This document shows, piece after piece, positions 23,517 to 31,100 of a stretch of 64,000 bases of DNA. A program made the translations under genes and the position numbers. The stretch's first letter is position 1. Every line of letters begins with the position of its first letter. The notes below the pieces were generated by a model. That model did not search any database, had not been told where the DNA came from, and worked only from the letters and a program-made list of their open reading frames with translations. The stretch comes from Lancefieldella parvula DSM 20469 (GTDB lineage Bacteria; Actinomycetota; Coriobacteriia; Coriobacteriales; Atopobiaceae): the NCBI RefSeq assembly GCF_000024225.1, contig NC_013203.1:372001-436000 (forward strand), in the 5' to 3' direction.

Positions 23517-24572
23517 CTAGCCGCGATAGCCGTCTGGGTTCATTGACTGCCACTTCCAGGAGTCGCGGCACATGTCGGCAAGATTGTACTGAGCCTTCCA
23601 GCCAAGTACCTTAGCAGCCTTCTGGCAGTCGGCGTAGTTGGTTGCAACGTCACCTGCACGACGAGGCTCAATGACATAAGGAATCTCTTTGCCGCAAGCC
23701 TTTGAGAATGCCTTGATAACGTCAAGTACTGAGCTACCAGTGCCGGTACCCAGGTTGAAGACCTCAACGCCGGTACGGCCAGCCATCCACTTAAGTGCAG
23801 CAACGTGGCCGGAGCCAAGGTCACAGACGTGGATGTAGTCGCGAACGCCCGTGCCATCTGGAGTGTTGTAGTCGTCGCCAAAGACGTGAACTGCCTCGCG
23901 CTTGCCCACGGCAACCTGAGCCACGTAAGGGACTAGGTTATTTGGAATACCTGCAGGATCTTCTCCGATGAGGCCAGATTGGTGAGCGCCAATAGGATTG
24001 AAGTATCTGAGCAGAACAACGTTCCACTCTGGATCTGCAGTGTGAACGTCGGTGAGAATTTGCTCAATCATCCACTTGGTCCAGCCGTAAGGGTTGGTTG
24101 CGTTCTTCTTGGGACTTCGCTCGGTCAGAGGAAGACTATCTGGGTCTCCGTAGACAGTTGCAGAGCTCGAGAAAATAATTGACTTGCAGCCATGGTTCCT
24201 CATGACATCAAGAAGGGTGAGGGTGTTACCCAGGTTGTTTGTGTAGTACTCAATAGGCTTGGTAACAGACTCGCCAACAGCTTTGAAACCTGCAAAATGA
24301 ATAACAAAATTAATAGGATGCTCGTCAAAGATACGGTTCAGTGCGTCTGCATTATTGACGTCTGCCTTATAGAACGAAAGACGCTTGGCGTTCTCTTCTC
24401 CCACAATGGTTTTGATGCGATCAATAACCTTTGCCGAGGCATTGGAGAGGTCATCAACAATTACAGCCTCGTAGCCGGAGTTGAGCAGTTCAACAACGGT
24501 ATGGCTACCAATAAAGCCCGCACCACCAGTAACAAGTACGCAGCCATTTGATGAGGTAGACGTATCTGACAT
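23517..24572 (-). CDS. galE: UDP-glucose 4-epimerase
   Basis: 351 residues of the extended short-chain dehydrogenase family, interconverting UDP-glucose and UDP-galactose. NAD-binding VLVTGGAGFIGSHTVVELL lies at the N-terminus, with VIVDDLSNAS, FAGFKAVGESV, SSSATVYGD and the catalytic YxxxK in NPYGWTKWMIEQ; NPIGAHQSGLIGEDP and GVRDYIHVCDLGSGHV complete the match. The ATG at 24572 follows AAAGGA; ten more in-frame codons upstream lack a ribosome site. It heads the envelope-precursor operon. Confidence 0.5.
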   Translation of the reverse strand: MSDTSTSSNGCVLVTGGAGFIGSHTVVELLNSGYEAVIVDDLSNASAKVIDRIKTIVGEENAKRLSFYKADVNNADALNRIFDEHPINFVIHFAGFKAVGESVTKPIEYYTNNLGNTLTLLDVMRNHGCKSIIFSSSATVYGDPDSLPLTERSPKKNATNPYGWTKWMIEQILTDVHTADPEWNVVLLRYFNPIGAHQSGLIGEDPAGIPNNLVPYVAQVAVGKREAVHVFGDDYNTPDGTGVRDYIHVCDLGSGHVAALKWMAGRTGVEVFNLGTGTGSSVLDVIKAFSKACGKEIPYVIEPRRAGDVATNYADCQKAAKVLGWKAQYNLADMCRDSWKWQSMNPDGYRG

Positions 24573-25277
24573 AACAATCCTTTCATGAACACTATGTGTC
24601 ACAAGTATACGGCTTTTTTATGAAGCGATGCGCGTTGCAAGTGCACGGGTTTCTTGGCAGGCGGGTCAACCCCGTACGTCCTTCTCGCTAAGCACGCAGA
24701 AATGAAACGCGCGCCTAAAAAGTTCAAAGAATCTGTGTTTGAGACACCGATTCTTTAAGGAAATCAGGCAAATTCACAGATTCTTTGATGTTTTAAGGCA
24801 AAAGTTACAGATTCTTTGAGAAAACAGGCTCACTCCAGAAGCTCTCCGCCTCGTATTACCCACTTGGCGAGAAACCCTGTCCACTAGCGGCGCTTTCGCA
24901 CAAGAAACCCGGCATCCACACGAAATGATTGCCTGGGTTTTGGATTAATCGATCCTAGGATATCTACGATTCGGGCTCGCACGGTCCCTCATAGATCCTT
25001 CTCTAAAAAATTGATCGAGACACTTTCTTTTCTAATGGGTTCTCATAAGCTCATCAATTATTTAATGGTGCTCAATTATTCTTTTTTCTTATAAGAAATA
25101 TGATTAAAAGGAATAACTTATTTAATAGTTAAATATATTTTCATCTATAAAAAGTAAATATTTAGATATAAAAAATAATCATGCATGCTGTTTACTGATT
25201 GTTTTTAGAAAATGAATTTTACAATTTAGAAGTAGAGAAAGATGCGGCCTATTGTCATGATGCAGAAGGGGAGTCTT
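24573..25277. other. Intergenic region upstream of galE and the RiPP-like segment
   Basis: About 700 bases with no gene. The galE-proximal part holds three degraded ~31-bp repeats (24726-24840) and one copy of the GGCGAGAA motif (24866-24873). From about 25000 onward the sequence becomes strongly AT-rich (runs such as TAAATATATTTTC), marking the likely edge of acquired DNA. No RNA gene was recognised. Confidence 0.5.
24726..24840. repeat. Degenerate ~31-bp tandem repeats with an inverted copy
   Basis: The word GATTCTTT starts at 24749, 24779 and 24810 (spacing 30 and 31) and is each time followed about 12-15 bases later by an AGGC. An inverted copy, AAAGAATCTGTG, starts at 24726 and can pair with CACAGATTCTTT. 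Too few and too diverged to be a CRISPR array; it may form a hairpin or be a regulator site cluster. Confidence 0.5.
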
Positions 25278-25405
25278 ATGTCTAATTCAGAAGACGGACT
25301 GAAAGATATTTGCAGAATAATCAGATTGACACGAGTGAGCTTGAAGAGCTTGAAGAGATGATTGCTCCAACATTTGGATGTGGTTGTGGAGGAATTTGCT
25401 GGTAA
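25278..25405 (+). pseudogene. Cys/Gly-rich RiPP precursor-like peptide, leader and core out of frame
   Basis: An ATG at 25278 preceded by AAGGGGAG opens MSNSEDGLKDIC..., which in this frame stops at 25361. In the -1 frame, from about 25310, the sequence reads LQNNQIDTSELEELEEMIAP and then TFGCGCGGICW, ending at TAA 25403-25405. An acidic leader followed by a short Cys/Gly-rich core is typical of ribosomally made, modified peptides. One base lost or gained between 25285 and 25312 would join the two parts into a ~43-residue precursor. Either the gene is broken or the core starts at a poor TTG. It is followed by a BtrH_N-like fragment and an ABC exporter. The peptide class is not recognised. Confidence 0.5.
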
Positions 25406-25493
25406 TTCTTTTTGAGATAGGAGTTCTTCCTGTCTTAGATCATGTGTTTTGACTAATTAAAGGCCTACATCTTCCTTTTCTTTGGAGAGTCTT

Positions 25494-25805
25494 ATGGGAT
25501 TAGGTGATTGTAATTTAGGAGCTGTATCATATCCCCTAAAAGATAAAGGATTAAACATTACTCCTGAAATGTGCTTTGGCATTGGGGAAGGTTATGGCTT
25601 TTCTTTCTGGGTTGAGAAAAGCAATCGGTTGCCCATAGTAGCCATAATGGGCAGAACAAGAAGTTGTGAAGAGGACCTATTTAGAAAATGTATTAGTACA
25701 TTTTCTCTGTTTGATGCCCTGTTCCCTCAAGAAAGTGAAATTGAAAAAGAGATTGTTGCTCTTGGAAGAAGCTTTACAGGAAGCAAGAGTAGGGAGTCAA
25801 AGTAA
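25494..25805 (+). CDS. BtrH_N-domain-like fragment in RiPP-like segment
   Basis: 103 residues. The stretch GDCNLGAVSYPLKDKG...MCFGIGEGYGFSFWVE...PIVAIMGR follows the pattern of the BtrH N-terminal domain (papain-like fold, a Cys near the N-terminus, then L-x-G-x-G-x-G-F), known from butirosin acyl transfer and found in peptide natural-product clusters. Full BtrH-type proteins exceed 300 residues, so this is at most the N-terminal third and may be truncated. Start ATG at 25494 follows GGAGAG. It lies 90 bases after the precursor-like peptide and 20 bases before the ABC ATPase. The assignment is made by eye and is moderate. Confidence 0.5.
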   Translation: MGLGDCNLGAVSYPLKDKGLNITPEMCFGIGEGYGFSFWVEKSNRLPIVAIMGRTRSCEEDLFRKCISTFSLFDALFPQESEIEKEIVALGRSFTGSKSRESK

Positions 25806-25825
25806 ATAAAGGGAGGTAAATTAAC

Positions 25826-26521
25826 ATGATACGGTTTGAGAATGTTTCAAAATCTTTTAAAGATGGCGATAAATATCACACAATTTTGAATCGTGCGTCT
25901 ACGAGTTTTAACGATGGCCAGAAAAACTGTATTGTTGGACGTTCTGGTTTGGGAAAATCAACTGTTCTTAAATTAATCTCATCAATTGAGAATGCAGATG
26001 AGGGCTCAATTTATATAAATGATATTAATATTTCAACTGCCTCTCAAGAAGAGATTCGTAGCATTCGTCAGCATCTAATAGGCTACGTATTTCAATCATT
26101 TAACCTTATCAAGTCCTTAACCGTAGAAGAAAACATTTTGCTTCCGACATTTTTCCTTGAAAGTCCTAGCGATTTGTTTGACATCTCATATCTGTTAGAT
26201 GTTTTGAATTTGCCTTCAAGCATACTAAAACAGGATGTCTCTACGATTAGTGGAGGCGAAAAACAGAGAGTAGCAATTGCTCGCGCTCTTATTAATAAGC
26301 CTAGAATTCTATTAGCAGATGAGCCGACAGGTAATCTTGATAGTAACAATGAGGAAAACGTTCTAAAGCTGTTTGACCGAATTACCAACGAGTTAGATAT
26401 GACTTTGGTCATTGTGACCCATTCTTCAAAAGTAGCTGCAAATTGCGACTGTATAGTGACTATTGAAAATGGAGAGTTCCAGCAGGTAAAAGATACTTTT
26501 AGTCAAAATCAGTTTGTTTGA
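25826..26521 (+). CDS. ABC transporter ATPase, MacB/LolD type
   Basis: 231 residues. Walker A VGRSGLGKSTVLK, Q-loop GYVFQSFNLIKSLTV, signature [15 protein letters not shown], Walker [14 protein letters not shown] and switch VIVTHSS identify a MacB/LolD-family ATPase. It works with the FtsX-like permease encoded directly after it. Base composition is AT-richer than the flanking core genes. GGGAGG 10 bases upstream is the ribosome site. Together they probably export or extract the peptide of the RiPP-like segment, or give immunity to it. Confidence 0.5.
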   Translation: MIRFENVSKSFKDGDKYHTILNRASTSFNDGQKNCIVGRSGLGKSTVLKLISSIENADEGSIYINDINISTASQEEIRSIRQHLIGYVFQSFNLIKSLTVEENILLPTFFLESPSDLFDISYLLDVLNLPSSILKQDVSTISGGEKQRVAIARALINKPRILLADEPTGNLDSNNEENVLKLFDRITNELDMTLVIVTHSSKVAANCDCIVTIENGEFQQVKDTFSQNQFV

Positions 26522-26533
26522 TTGGAGATTGTA

Positions 26534-27736
26534 ATGCATTCTTCAATGTATTTATTAGTCAAAAGAGCTTATTCAGCAAACAAAAAGAGAAATAGTTTGA
26601 CGATTCTTGCTGTTGGGATTTCAGTATTTCTTCTAACTGCTATTTTGACTTTTTCGACATCGTTCTATCATAAGATGATAGAAGAGATGAGAGTAGCTGA
26701 CGCAGACGTTGTAACAGTTGCTTTTGGAGCTGGCGACAACGCCTTAAACTATACGTATTTAAACCTTTACACCGATGATGATATAAAACTTATCAATCAG
26801 ATTGATGGAGTGACTGACGTTACAGGAGTGAAGGGTTTAAATGTTTCAGCGGTTACTTATGATAACAATAAGAGAATACTTGCAAATTCACTTAGAGGAA
26901 TTGATAGAAGCTATCTAGACAATTATAAAATTAGTTACACAGGTACATTCCCGGATAAGGATGATGAAATAATCATTGGCGCAAGGATTGCCGATGCCTC
27001 TGGTCTTCAAATAGGGGATAGTATTGATATTGATTTTGGCTCGCAAAGAAAAACATTTAAAATTGTTGGGATTTTAGATAAGCAAGAAGAACAGCTTTTC
27101 TCGACATTTCCTACCGAAATCAATCAACTAATTGCAACTTATTCAAACAGCTCTTTGTTTGAGACTTCAAATTACATTTATATATCTGCACGAGTTAAAG
27201 ATCAGGATCAGTTGTCAGAAGTTTCTAAAAAGATTGTTGAAGCGATTAATACAGACTCTAACCTTACTGAAGCTTTAGAAAATACAGGGCTTCATCCACT
27301 TGTGGCAACAAGGCAAAATGTATTAGACATGCTTGATACTTGGTTCAGCTACATCCTACTGTTTGTCTATGTCGTCTCAGTTCTTCTTGGAATAATTTCA
27401 ACTGTAAATATTTTTAATATTTTTGTTATCACCATCCAAGAGCAATTCAAAGATATTGCCGTTTATAAAATTGTCGGCGCTTCAATTAGACAAATCAGAA
27501 ATATCTTTATCTATCAGAGCGTTTTTATTGGAACAATGGGTTCAGTTTTAGGAATTCTACTTGGCTATCTCTTATCAGCTATTGTTATTTTGCTGCTTCA
27601 TTGGCCAATTAGGTTTGATGTCTATACCGTTCTTATTCCTTTTGCTATTGGAATGACTTCTCCTATTTGTGCTGGAGTTTGGTCATCTAAGAAATCTGAA
27701 AAAGTTGATATTAATATTTTAACAGGGAATCTATAG
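26534..27736 (+). CDS. FtsX/MacB-type ABC permease
   Basis: 400 residues with one N-terminal membrane helix (NSLTILAVGISVFLLTAILTF), a ~220-residue extracytoplasmic region of the MacB periplasmic-core type (IIIGARIADASGLQIGDSIDI) and three C-terminal spans (YILLFVYVVSVLLGIISTVNIFNIFVI, SVFIGTMGSVLGILLGYLLSAIVILLL and a last short one). ATG 26534 follows GGAG; an earlier TTG touches the ATPase stop. Partner of the preceding ATPase. Mechanotransmission-type exporter rather than substrate channel, by family. Confidence 0.5.
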   Translation: MHSSMYLLVKRAYSANKKRNSLTILAVGISVFLLTAILTFSTSFYHKMIEEMRVADADVVTVAFGAGDNALNYTYLNLYTDDDIKLINQIDGVTDVTGVKGLNVSAVTYDNNKRILANSLRGIDRSYLDNYKISYTGTFPDKDDEIIIGARIADASGLQIGDSIDIDFGSQRKTFKIVGILDKQEEQLFSTFPTEINQLIATYSNSSLFETSNYIYISARVKDQDQLSEVSKKIVEAINTDSNLTEALENTGLHPLVATRQNVLDMLDTWFSYILLFVYVVSVLLGIISTVNIFNIFVITIQEQFKDIAVYKIVGASIRQIRNIFIYQSVFIGTMGSVLGILLGYLLSAIVILLLHWPIRFDVYTVLIPFAIGMTSPICAGVWSSKKSEKVDINILTGNL

Positions 27737-27745
27737 GTGGTCAGA

Positions 27746-27940
27746 ATGTTACATACTCTAAAAACAGGACACATTTTTTTATTCGATAACGAAACTCTTT
27801 CTATCTATTCTCTTGATAAAGAGCAGGGGCAGCGTTTTTACGATATCGGCGATATTGAGCTGACTAAGGCTTTTCAAAAGAATAAGAGCGGGAATAAAAA
27901 AGTGAGCTTGTTGAGGATAATCAGATTGCCTCTAGGTTAG
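27746..27940 (+). pseudogene. Short ORF, probable remnant of a larger (maturase-like?) protein
   Basis: 64 residues opening MLHTLKTGHIFLFDNETLSIYSLDKEQGQRFYDIGDIE, then a lysine-rich stretch and a stop. The strand pattern resembles the short N-terminal region that precedes radical-SAM domains of some peptide maturases, but no CxxxCxxC motif exists downstream. Other frames after the stop (to about 28022) give further peptide-like tails such as an open run ending AENC, consistent with a deleted and frameshifted gene. Identity is uncertain; it is adjacent to the ABC permease gene in the AT-rich segment. Confidence 0.5.
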
Positions 27941-28044
27941 TATTGGTCATCACTTTTTCAGTAATCCATTAAGGGCTATGCAGATTTCTAATATTGAAAA
28001 AGAACTAGCTGAAAACTGCTAAGACAAAAAGAGTAATTTTTAAA

Positions 28045-28077
28045 AGGGTTCCACATTTGTTCGAAATGTGGAACCCT
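28045..28077 (-). terminator. Terminator of purL
   Basis: A perfect 14-bp stem, AGGGTTCCACATTT with AAATGTGGAACCCT, loop of 5 bases. On the minus strand it is followed by TTTTAAAAATT, fitting termination of purL, whose stop is 28 bases upstream; it also closes the plus-strand segment. Confidence 0.5.
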
Positions 28078-28105
28078 AACTTATCTTGTATTTCCTAAGA
28101 TTAGC

Positions 28106-31100
28106 TTACTTGAAGTACTCGACGCCGCCCTCAATGAGAGGCTGGAACTGGTCGCCAGGGGTGAGCTCGGGGATGTTCTTGTAGAGGCCTGCGCCAGAGC
28201 GCTCCGTGTGACCCATCTTGCCCAAGATACGACCGTCGGGGCTGGTGATGCCCTCGATAGCCAGGACGGAGCCGTTAGGGTTAACGGAGAAGTCCATGCT
28301 TGGAGTACCTGTTGCGTCAACGTACTGCGTTGCAATCTGGCCGTTTGCCTTGAGCGTCTCAAGCAGCTCGTCGGAGGCAACAAAGCGGCCTTCTCCGTGG
28401 CTAATTGCAATGGTGTGAATGTCGCCAAGCGCGCATTTGGAGAGCCATGGGGACATCGTTGATGCAACGCTGGTGTGAACAAGCTGGCTCTGGTGACGGC
28501 CGATGGTGTTGAACGTTAGCGTTGGACAGGTGTCGTCCATAGGACGAATGTTGCCGTAAGGAACAAGGCCCAGCTTGATGAGTGCTTGGAAGCCATTGCA
28601 GATGCCCAGCATAAGTCCATCGCGCTGCTGTAGAAGGTCGCAAACAGCCTCGGTAACCTGAGGAGCACGGAAGAGAGCGCAGATGAACTTAGCAGATCCG
28701 TCTGGCTCGTCTCCGCCGGAGAAGCCGCCTGGAATCATGACAATCTGGCTCTTCTTGATAGACTCTGCCAGCGCATTTGCGGACTCAACAATGTCTTGAG
28801 GTGTCAGGTTGTTGATGACCAGCGTGGTTGGGTCAGCGCCCGCACGCTCAAAGGCACGCGCAACATCGTACTCGCAGTTGTTACCTGGGAATACGGGGAT
28901 GATGACGCGTGGGCGAGCAGGTGCGATAAGGGTTGGACCAGCGTAGGAGTGTCGTGTGGATGCACCATCGAAGCTGATTTTCTCCACAGCCTCGTCGGAG
29001 CCTCCGCGGTAAGGGAAGACTTCCTCAAGTGGGCGCTCCCACGCTTCCTGAAGCTCGGAGAGATCGATTTTCTCGCCACATGCGCTGAAGGTGTACTCGG
29101 ACGTGGTGGCGCCTAGCGGAGCTACGCACACGCCGTCGACGTCGTCAACGGATACGCCGTCTGCCAGCTCAACAATGAAGGCACCGTAAGTTGGCGAGAA
29201 GAGCGCGTTGGCAGAAATCTCTGGCACAAGCTCAACGCCCAGCTTGTTGCCCAGACAGCTCTTGAAGAGAGCCTCGGCTACGCCGCCGTAACCTGGTGTG
29301 GTGATGGCAAGCGCACTCTTGGACTGGACAAGAGTGCTGACCAGCTTGTATGCGGTAAGCAGGGACTCGTTGTTGGGGAGAAGACCGCTCTCGTCGTAGG
29401 ACGGAACAATAGAGATAAGCCTATGACCTGCGCCCTTGAACTCGTTGGAGACAATCTTGTCTACTTTGGTAAGGCCGGTGGCAAACGAAACCAGTGTTGG
29501 TGGAACGTCCAAGTCCTCAAAGGTACCGGACATGGAATCCTTACCACCAACAGCCGCAAGACCAAGGTTGACCTGCGCCATCAGTGCGCCGAGCAGTGCT
29601 GAGGTAGGTTTGCCCCAACGGTTTGGATTCTGGCCAAGTTTCTCGAAGTACTCCTGGAAAGTGAGGTAGAGGTCCTGGTACTTAAAGCCGGTAGCAACCA
29701 ACTTGGAGACGGACTCGACAACAGAGAGGTATGCACCGCGGAACTGGTCAGCCTCCATGAGGTAGGGGTTAAAGCCCCAGGCCATGCCCGAGACGGTGCT
29801 GGTTTGGCCCATAACAGGGAGCTTAGCCACCATAGAAAGGGCAGGGGTTAGCTGGCGAGCACCACCAAAGGGCATGAGGACAGTACCTGCGCCAATAGTG
29901 GAGTCAAAGCGCTCGGAGAGGCCCTTATTAGAGGCAACGTTTAAATCGCGTACCAGCGAGTGGAGTTTCTCGCCAAGGGTTGAGCCTGCCCAGGTGCGCT
30001 GGTAGACAAGAGGTTTGGCCAGGCGTACGGTGATTGATTTAGGCGCGCCGTTTGAGGCGAGAAATGCGCGGCTGATGTTGACAATCTTCTGACCGCGCCA
30101 ACGCATGACTAAACGAGGGTCTTCAGTGACTGTTGCCACAATGGTTGCCTCGAGATTTTCTTCGCGGGCGTATGCGCAGAACTGCTCAACGTCTTTTGCC
30201 TCAAGCGCAACAGCCATGCGCTCCTGAGACTCGGAGATTGCCAGTTCAGTGCCGTCAAGACCGTCGTACTTTTTAGGAACAGCGTCCAGGTTAACGTCAA
30301 GGCCGTCGGCAAGCTCGCCAATAGCAACAGAAACGCCACCTGCACCAAAGTCATTGCAGCGCTTGATAAGCTTGCAAGCGTCTTCACGGCGGAAGAGACG
30401 CTGAAGCTTGCGCTCAACAGGGGCGTTACCCTTCTGAACCTCGGCGCCGTCGCGCTCAATAGAGCCTGCGTCGTGAGCCTTGGAAGAACCAGTTGCGCCG
30501 CCAATGCCATCGCGACCAGTGCGGCCGCCGAGAAGAACAATGACGTCGCCATCTTCTGGGCGTTCGCGACGGACGTGGCTTTGAGGAGTTGCGCCTACAA
30601 CAGCACCAATCTCCATGCGTTTTGCAACGTAGCCTGGGTGGTAGAGCTCAGAAACTTGACCGGTAGCAAGGCCAATCTGGTTGCCGTAGCTGGAATAACC
30701 TGCAGCTGCCGTGCGTACGATGGTGCGCTGGGGAAGCTTTCCAGGAAGTGTCTGGAAAACAGGAACGGTTGGGTCTGCAGCACCAGTGACGCGCATTGCC
30801 TGGTAGACGTAGCTGCGGCCAGAAAGAGGGTCGCGGATAGCACCGCCGATGCAGGTTGCTGCGCCACCAAAAGGTTCAATTTCGGTTGGGTGGTTATGAG
30901 TCTCGTTCTTGAAGAGGAAGAGCCAGTCTTCGTCTTTGCCGTCAACGTCTACTTTGACCTTTACGGTACAAGCGTTAATCTCTTCTGACTCATCAAGATT
31001 GGTGAGGATACCCTTCTTGCGAAGGTACTTTGCACCAATAGTTGCCATATCCCAAAGAGACACGGCACGATCTTCTCGCCCAAGCTCTTTACGCATGGAG

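What the first reader, a model, noticed from the sequence alone, without database searches (positions are those of the whole stretch)
25278..28022. Decayed RiPP-like gene cluster with a GCGCGGICW core peptide
An ORF with a good ribosome site (MSNSEDGL...) lies out of frame with an acidic leader end EELEEMIAP followed by TFGCGCGGICW and a stop. Next come a BtrH_N-like fragment, a MacB-type ATPase and permease, and a truncated 64-codon ORF followed by frameshifted remnants. Composition changes sharply at about 25.0 and 28.0 kb, and the genome-wide motif is absent. This reads as an acquired peptide natural-product cluster that has lost or frameshifted its maturation genes while keeping the exporter. 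The peptide class does not match one I know.
Basis: partly seen in the sequence, partly recalled or inferred. Interest (0 to 1): 0.75.

Follow-up and report, generated by a model that had tools for sequence, protein, structure and literature searches.

The report
Decayed peptide-antibiotic-like gene cluster remnant
A small, foreign-looking piece of DNA in this bacterium is probably the wreck of a gene cluster for making and exporting a small modified peptide; a fuller, related cluster on a plasmid of the mouth bacterium Actinomyces oris hints at a peptide family that the searches made here did not find described.

Summary
The observation largely holds. An AT-rich island of about 3.2 kb (24928-28104; left edge uncertain by some 40 bases) occupies a spot where the nearest congener (G004) has 78 bases beside purL. 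It carries a strong ribosome site and ATG (25278), a minus-one-frame acidic leader ending in TFGCGCGGICW (0 comparable ORF tails in 14.4 Mb of simulated DNA), a 103-aa BtrH_N fragment, an open MacB-type ATPase and permease, and a 64/67-codon unidentified ORF. The key lead: the minus-one-frame peptide finds (tblastn E 0.7) an unannotated 31-aa ORF on an Actinomyces oris plasmid, 13 of 29 identical without gaps into the Cys-rich end, just before an ABC ATPase, a permease, a 319-aa BtrH_N-type protein, a radical SAM/SPASM enzyme and an M50-like protease. So the core is probably a real RiPP precursor, with radical SAM and BtrH_N as likely maturation partners. The window has no radical SAM-like ORF and only half a BtrH_N domain, so this is most likely a relic with its exporter kept. 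The frameshift is not proved: a TTG start gives a 31-aa peptide in one frame. The peptide family, not the wreck, is the interesting part.

The parts
24712..24940 (.). copy of a dispersed intergenic repeat found in this genome and in G004; the island begins at its right end
   Evidence: many copies in own genome and G004, some matching as far as 24939; alignment to the purL side of G004 stops at 24927
24928..28104 (.). AT-rich island, absent at the purL side in G004 (78 bases instead); left edge uncertain, between 24928 and about 24969
25278..25361 (+). frame-0 ORF MSNSEDGL... (27 aa) with strong ribosome site; probable original start of the precursor
25310..25405 (+). minus-one-frame precursor reading, 31 aa from a TTG; acidic leader plus Cys/Gly-rich end
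25370..25402 (+). presumed core TFGCGCGGICW (borders inferred)
   Evidence: aligned, but for its last residue, with the A. oris peptide end
25411..25439 (+). stem-loop after the precursor, possible attenuator
   Evidence: consensus scan only: 4 terminator-like sites in the region, shuffles mean 1.4
25494..25805 (+). 103-aa BtrH_N fragment, N-terminal half with the conserved DC, C-terminal half missing
25826..26521 (+). ABC exporter ATPase (LolD/MacB type), open
26534..27736 (+). MacB/FtsX-type permease, 400 aa, open
27737..27940 (+). 67-codon ORF (64 from ATG 27746), unidentified; possibly the N-terminus of a lost maturation protein
   Evidence: no family match above chance; found in 1 of 200 relatives, its own genome; similarity to a radical SAM N-terminus not significant, 63 of 1000 shuffles as good
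28045..28077 (+). 14-bp perfect inverted repeat, terminator-like, at the island's right end

Best explanation
This is the relic of a horizontally acquired RiPP cluster of the same kind as one on the Actinomyces oris plasmid NZ_CP116225.1. In a complete cluster I infer that a precursor of about 31-40 aa is recognised by its acidic leader (shared letters ID..EL..LEE....P), that a radical SAM/SPASM enzyme closest to the PapB group installs cross-links at the Cys/Gly-rich end, that the papain-fold BtrH_N protein trims the leader or acylates the peptide, and that a MacB-type ABC pair exports the product or protects the cell. Shown: similarity of the two precursors, the gene neighbourhood in A. oris, a half BtrH_N domain and open exporter genes here, no radical SAM-like ORF in the window, island-free purL side in G004. 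Inferred: the chemistry, the role of BtrH_N, the loss of a maturase, the frame break as damage, and that the kept exporter may now serve transport or immunity.
For: Peptide to A. oris: tblastn against 72,556 plasmid records, E 0.7, best of 3 hits; the other two (E 1 and 5) fall in a macro-domain gene and an ABC substrate-binding gene, with no RiPP genes annotated within 4 kb. Pairwise 13 of 29 identical, no gaps; 0 of 5000 shuffles as good, also when leader and core are shuffled apart. The hit ORF (31 aa from a GTG, ribosome site -20.1) lies 82 bases before an ATPase; then follow a permease (FtsX 4.1e-4, below Pfam's cut-off), a BtrH_N-type protein (PF14399 9.7e-5, below the cut-off), a radical SAM (4.7e-19) with SPASM (2.9e-5), and a YydH/LiaK-like protease (3.2e-11, below the cut-off). 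A hand-scrambled peptide gave 1 hit, E 3, with no RiPP gene annotated within 4 kb. BtrH_N here covers only profile 2-63, against open frames of 384 and 392 codons in G334. The only close exporter relative among the Coriobacteriia searched (G040, permease 53%, ATPase 56%) is also disrupted, by two transposase genes.
Against: The A. oris link rests on one peptide match with a search E of 0.7 plus its neighbourhood; the A. oris peptide itself finds only its own record in plasmids, and the window peptide finds 4 phage records at E about 8, not examined. The window's BtrH_N fragment shows no direct similarity to the A. oris BtrH_N protein (210 and 496 of 1000 shuffles as good); they share only the Pfam family, in different halves. 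ATPases are 35% and permeases 19% identical, the permeases differ in size (400 against 696 aa) and gene order differs. No trace of a radical SAM gene was found here; ORF 27737 is unidentified. No second complete cluster was found.
Confidence: 0.6

Rival explanations
1. The precursor is intact and starts at TTG 25310 (31 aa); MSNSEDGL is a spurious or regulatory short ORF. The maturase acts from elsewhere in the genome, or the peptide is exported unmodified.
For: One open frame, 31 aa, the same length as the A. oris precursor from its GTG; the alignment covers residues 2-30 of these 31.
Against: Weak ribosome site at the TTG (-4.9; the best quarter of random island positions reaches -4.6) against -9.7 at the ATG; half BtrH_N domain and no radical SAM-like ORF in the window. 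The rest of the genome was not searched for radical SAM maturases.
Confidence: 0.2
2. The frame break is a sequencing error and the precursor gene is intact from 25278; only downstream genes are lost.
For: The strong ribosome site is at the ATG and the core lies in the neighbouring frame.
Against: No reads or second strain could be checked, so there is no direct evidence either way; it does not explain the half BtrH_N domain.
Confidence: 0.15
3. Not a RiPP remnant: an ABC exporter gene pair with chance short ORFs around it.
For: G040 holds such a pair with no precursor or BtrH_N found in 19.9 kb around it; the last ORF matches nothing.
Against: BtrH_N match, and the A. oris precursor match with its neighbourhood; 0 such ORF tails in 14.4 Mb simulated.
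Confidence: 0.05

Closest known systems
Cluster on the Actinomyces oris WVU627 plasmid (NZ_CP116225.1, about 150.7-156.6 kb), precursor not annotated
   Same: precursor leader and Cys/Gly-rich end; ABC ATPase and FtsX-type permease; BtrH_N-type protein
   Different: has radical SAM/SPASM and M50-like genes, a larger permease, another gene order, and an end ATGGGCGAFC instead of TFGCGCGGICW
Epipeptides (yydFGHIJ of Bacillus subtilis; PMC7026026, passages seen)
   Same: the A. oris cluster has a radical SAM enzyme, a YydH/LiaK-like protease and an ABC pair
   Different: neither precursor reaches the cut-off of a precursor family in NCBIfam; Cys-rich end; extra BtrH_N protein; window lacks radical SAM and protease
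PapB-type ranthipeptides (NCBIfam NF047865)
   Same: best named family of the A. oris radical SAM enzyme, 189.7 bits
   Different: below its cut-off of 340 bits
BtrH of butirosin biosynthesis (PF14399; PMC10318531, passages seen)
   Same: N-terminal papain-like domain
   Different: acts on an aminoglycoside; here half the domain is missing

Membership tests
RiPP cluster (general) | short precursor gene with leader and core | tested here: met
   in one frame only from the TTG, across a frame break from the ATG
RiPP cluster (general) | modifying enzyme next to the precursor | tested here: not met
   only half a BtrH_N domain; no CxxxCxxC frame over 150 codons in the window; met in the A. oris relative
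RiPP cluster (general) | exporter or immunity transporter | tested here: met
   that it carries the peptide is not shown
Ranthipeptide/sactipeptide | radical SAM/SPASM maturase | tested here: not met
   no radical SAM-like motif in the window; present in A. oris
Ranthipeptide/sactipeptide | Cys thioether cross-links in the product | not testable with these tools
   needs mass spectrometry
Epipeptide | YydF-like precursor with YydG, YydH, YydIJ | tested here: not met
   no epipeptide precursor match for either peptide; LiaK/YydH match in A. oris is 43.4 bits against a cut-off of 225
Daptide | daptide precursor family | tested here: not met
   12.1-12.6 bits against a cut-off of 25
BtrH_N (PF14399) | whole N-terminal domain | tested here: not met
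   profile 2-63 of 134; 30.8 bits against a cut-off of 29.7, 29.2 in the genome search

The most novel reading that the evidence does not exclude
The window relic and the A. oris cluster belong to an undescribed RiPP family of actinobacteria, with a leader of the type ID..EL..LEE....P and a short C-terminal Gly/Cys core, matured by a radical SAM/SPASM enzyme together with a papain-fold BtrH_N enzyme that trims or acylates a peptide instead of an aminoglycoside.
Probability: 0.4. Interest if true: 0.62.

Novelty: new variant of a known kind. Interest (0 to 1): 0.45.

Why it matters
If right, an unannotated 31-aa gene on an Actinomyces oris plasmid is the precursor of a testable new RiPP whose pathway pairs a radical SAM enzyme with a BtrH_N enzyme. 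The window would then be a case in which a maturation pathway decayed while its exporter stayed open, as expected if the exporter is kept for transport or immunity.

Tried and rejected
Core pattern GCGCGGICW: 2 matches in genome contigs (Actinoplanes, Sphingomonadales), both in frames where the string is not a C-terminus, and 0 in viral contigs: taken as chance. Viral contig scans with the BtrH_N fragment, the permease, the permease alignment, A. oris BtrH_N and A. oris radical SAM found no relative. BtrH_N fragment in plasmids and phages: none. Permease in plasmids: 578 records, the 20 listed 21-24% identical; in phages 11 records, 20-24%. ATPase in plasmids at E 1e-40: 4 records, 38-42% identical; the places of three were looked at and no like precursor was seen by eye. 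ORF 27737 in plasmids: none at E 1. A. oris radical SAM in plasmids: 42 records, the 24 listed besides itself at most 29% identical and mostly annotated peaB; neighbours not looked at.

Radical SAM N-terminus for ORF 27737: attractive by eye, not significant (63 of 1000 shuffles as good against an Anaerococcus radical SAM N-terminus, 269 of 1000 against the A. oris one). Fold predictions had low confidence (pLDDT 62.7 and 42.0) and the one fold search gave nothing at E 0.001 or better. NCBIfam 'actinodefensin-associated protein B' for that ORF has E 0.24: chance level. PDB sequence search of that ORF: best E 0.56. Apilactobacillus BtrH-like hits (E 0.8): the one scanned has no Pfam match, dropped. 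The G334 BtrH_N proteins: the one whose surroundings I read lies beside an ORF that looks by eye like an acyl-activating enzyme. A programmed frameshift was considered by reading the sequence by eye; I saw no slippery heptamer. Rfam over 24500-28200: one match, E 0.45.

Literature: 10 searches. No paper held BtrH_N with precursor peptide and ABC transporter, Atopobium parvulum with gene cluster and RiPP (17), BtrH with radical SAM and RiPP (30), butirosin protein H with bacteriocin, the peptide strings, PF14399 with precursor peptide, or actinodefensin with PqqD (74). Lancefieldella with bacteriocin gave 8 listings, none relevant by title and abstract start; BtrH with acyltransferase gave 5 listings, one opened for passages; the epipeptide search gave 19 papers, 10 listed, one opened for passages.

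Full report
Setting. The window is bases 372001-436000 of a single 1,543,805-base contig. The size fits what I recall for Lancefieldella (Atopobium) parvula DSM 20469; no call names the organism.

The island. GC is 0.31-0.38 in the windows inside about 24.9-28.0 kb, flanked by 0.46-0.58, and third-position GC of the exporter genes is 0.27-0.31 against 0.475-0.59 in five neighbouring genes. In the four congeners searched two show nothing, and in the other two the island's own DNA gives matches of 45 bases or less; the longer matches belong to a dispersed repeat left of it. In G004, the nearest (galE 93% identical), the purL end is followed after 78 bases by the repeat that lies left of the island in the window (window 24927 and 28105). 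The left edge is uncertain: other repeat copies match as far as 24939 and one 45-base match in G004 reaches 24969. G004's galE lies on another contig that ends in the repeat, so adjacency on that side is inferred. In G001-G003 purL is not within about 6 kb upstream of galE, so they offer no empty site.

The genes. Frame 0 from ATG 25278 reads MSNSEDGLKDICRIIRLTRVSLKSLKR. The frame one base back reads ERYLQNNQIDTSELEELEEMIAPTFGCGCGGICW to a stop and has a TTG at 25310. Ribosome-site energies: -9.7 at the ATG, -4.9 at the TTG. BtrH_N 25494-25805 matches only profile positions 2-63 of 134; two relatives in G334 have open frames of 392 and 384 codons and share the DC motif. After its stop only 20 bases remain before the ATPase start, so the missing part is not simply out of frame downstream. 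ATPase and permease are open and match over their length. ORF 27737 and the frames after it match nothing, although its ATG 27746 has a good ribosome site (-12.8).

Relatives. BtrH_N fragment: 1 of 140 genomes in the family, its own; 4 of 396 in the class with its own counted, none close. ORF 27737: 1 of 200 relatives, its own. Permease: 17 of 396 in the class at E 1e-12, 3 of 140 in the family at 1e-12, 2 of 357 in the order at 1e-18, 8 of 346 in the phylum at 1e-15, its own genome counted in each and the sets overlapping. Only G040 is close (53% over 291 columns; ATPase 56%); there the permease is in pieces with two transposase genes between them (DDE_Tnp_1 1.8e-8; rve 1.6e-17), and no precursor or BtrH_N was found in the 19.9 kb read. 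Chromosomes of Bacillota were reached only by the core pattern in genome contigs; otherwise only plasmids, phages and viral contigs.

The peptide. tblastn of the minus-one-frame peptide against 72,556 plasmid records gave 3 hits. The best, E 0.7, is an unannotated ORF on an Actinomyces oris plasmid, source oral cavity. It ends in GGGCGAFC and aligns 13 of 29 without gaps. Downstream lie an ATPase (35% identical to the window's), a 696-aa permease, a BtrH_N-type protein, a radical SAM/SPASM enzyme and a YydH/LiaK-like protease; permease, BtrH_N and protease matches are below the curated cut-offs. The other two hits, and the hit of a scrambled control, have no such genes annotated within 4 kb. 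Phages gave 4 records at E about 8, not examined. The neighbourhood was not used in the search, so it is independent support that the window peptide is a RiPP precursor. The radical SAM enzyme scores below the cut-off of each of the 25 NCBIfam families shown of 79 (best PapB, 189.7 against 340 bits). The A. oris peptide matches no family in NCBIfam or Pfam and only its own record in plasmids.

Mechanism. Most likely the leader binds the maturases, the radical SAM enzyme cross-links Cys residues, BtrH_N trims or acylates, and the ABC pair exports or protects. [quoted passage not shown] PMC7026026 (passages seen) describes the epipeptide operon, in which the ABC pair had been proposed as immunity but had at most a minor part. 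None of these steps is shown for the present family.

Verdict. It is most likely a decayed member of a RiPP family for which A. oris gives a fuller cluster; the frame break as damage and the loss of a maturase are inferred.

Noticed in passing
window 24712-24940: Dispersed intergenic repeat with many copies in this genome and in G004; the island lies at the end of one copy, and two G004 contigs end in such copies.
   Followed up: partly
L056 (G040:C1:2482657-2488181): Related exporter in another Atopobiaceae genome; the permease start is present twice around a transposase gene and the C-terminal part lies beyond a second one.
   Followed up: partly
window 25211-25282: A short stretch (NEFYNLEVEKDAAYCHDAEGESYV) ends at the ATG, in the same frame as the core peptide; no family match.
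   Followed up: partly
window 25314-25359 and 27901-27935: Two short similar stretches (82% over 22 bases, 73% over 26) between the precursor and the last ORF; could be chance or a second precursor remnant.
   Followed up: no
L092:4396-8758 (Anaerococcus prevotii plasmid NC_013164.1): A 50-aa Cys/Trp-rich small ORF before a radical SAM gene, an ATPase 41% like the window's and a permease: another possible radical SAM RiPP cluster, beside annotated class III lanthipeptides.
   Followed up: partly
L090:12898-13053 (A. oris plasmid): The annotated start of the radical SAM protein may be too late: 52 codons beginning with ATG are open in frame upstream of it.
   Followed up: partly
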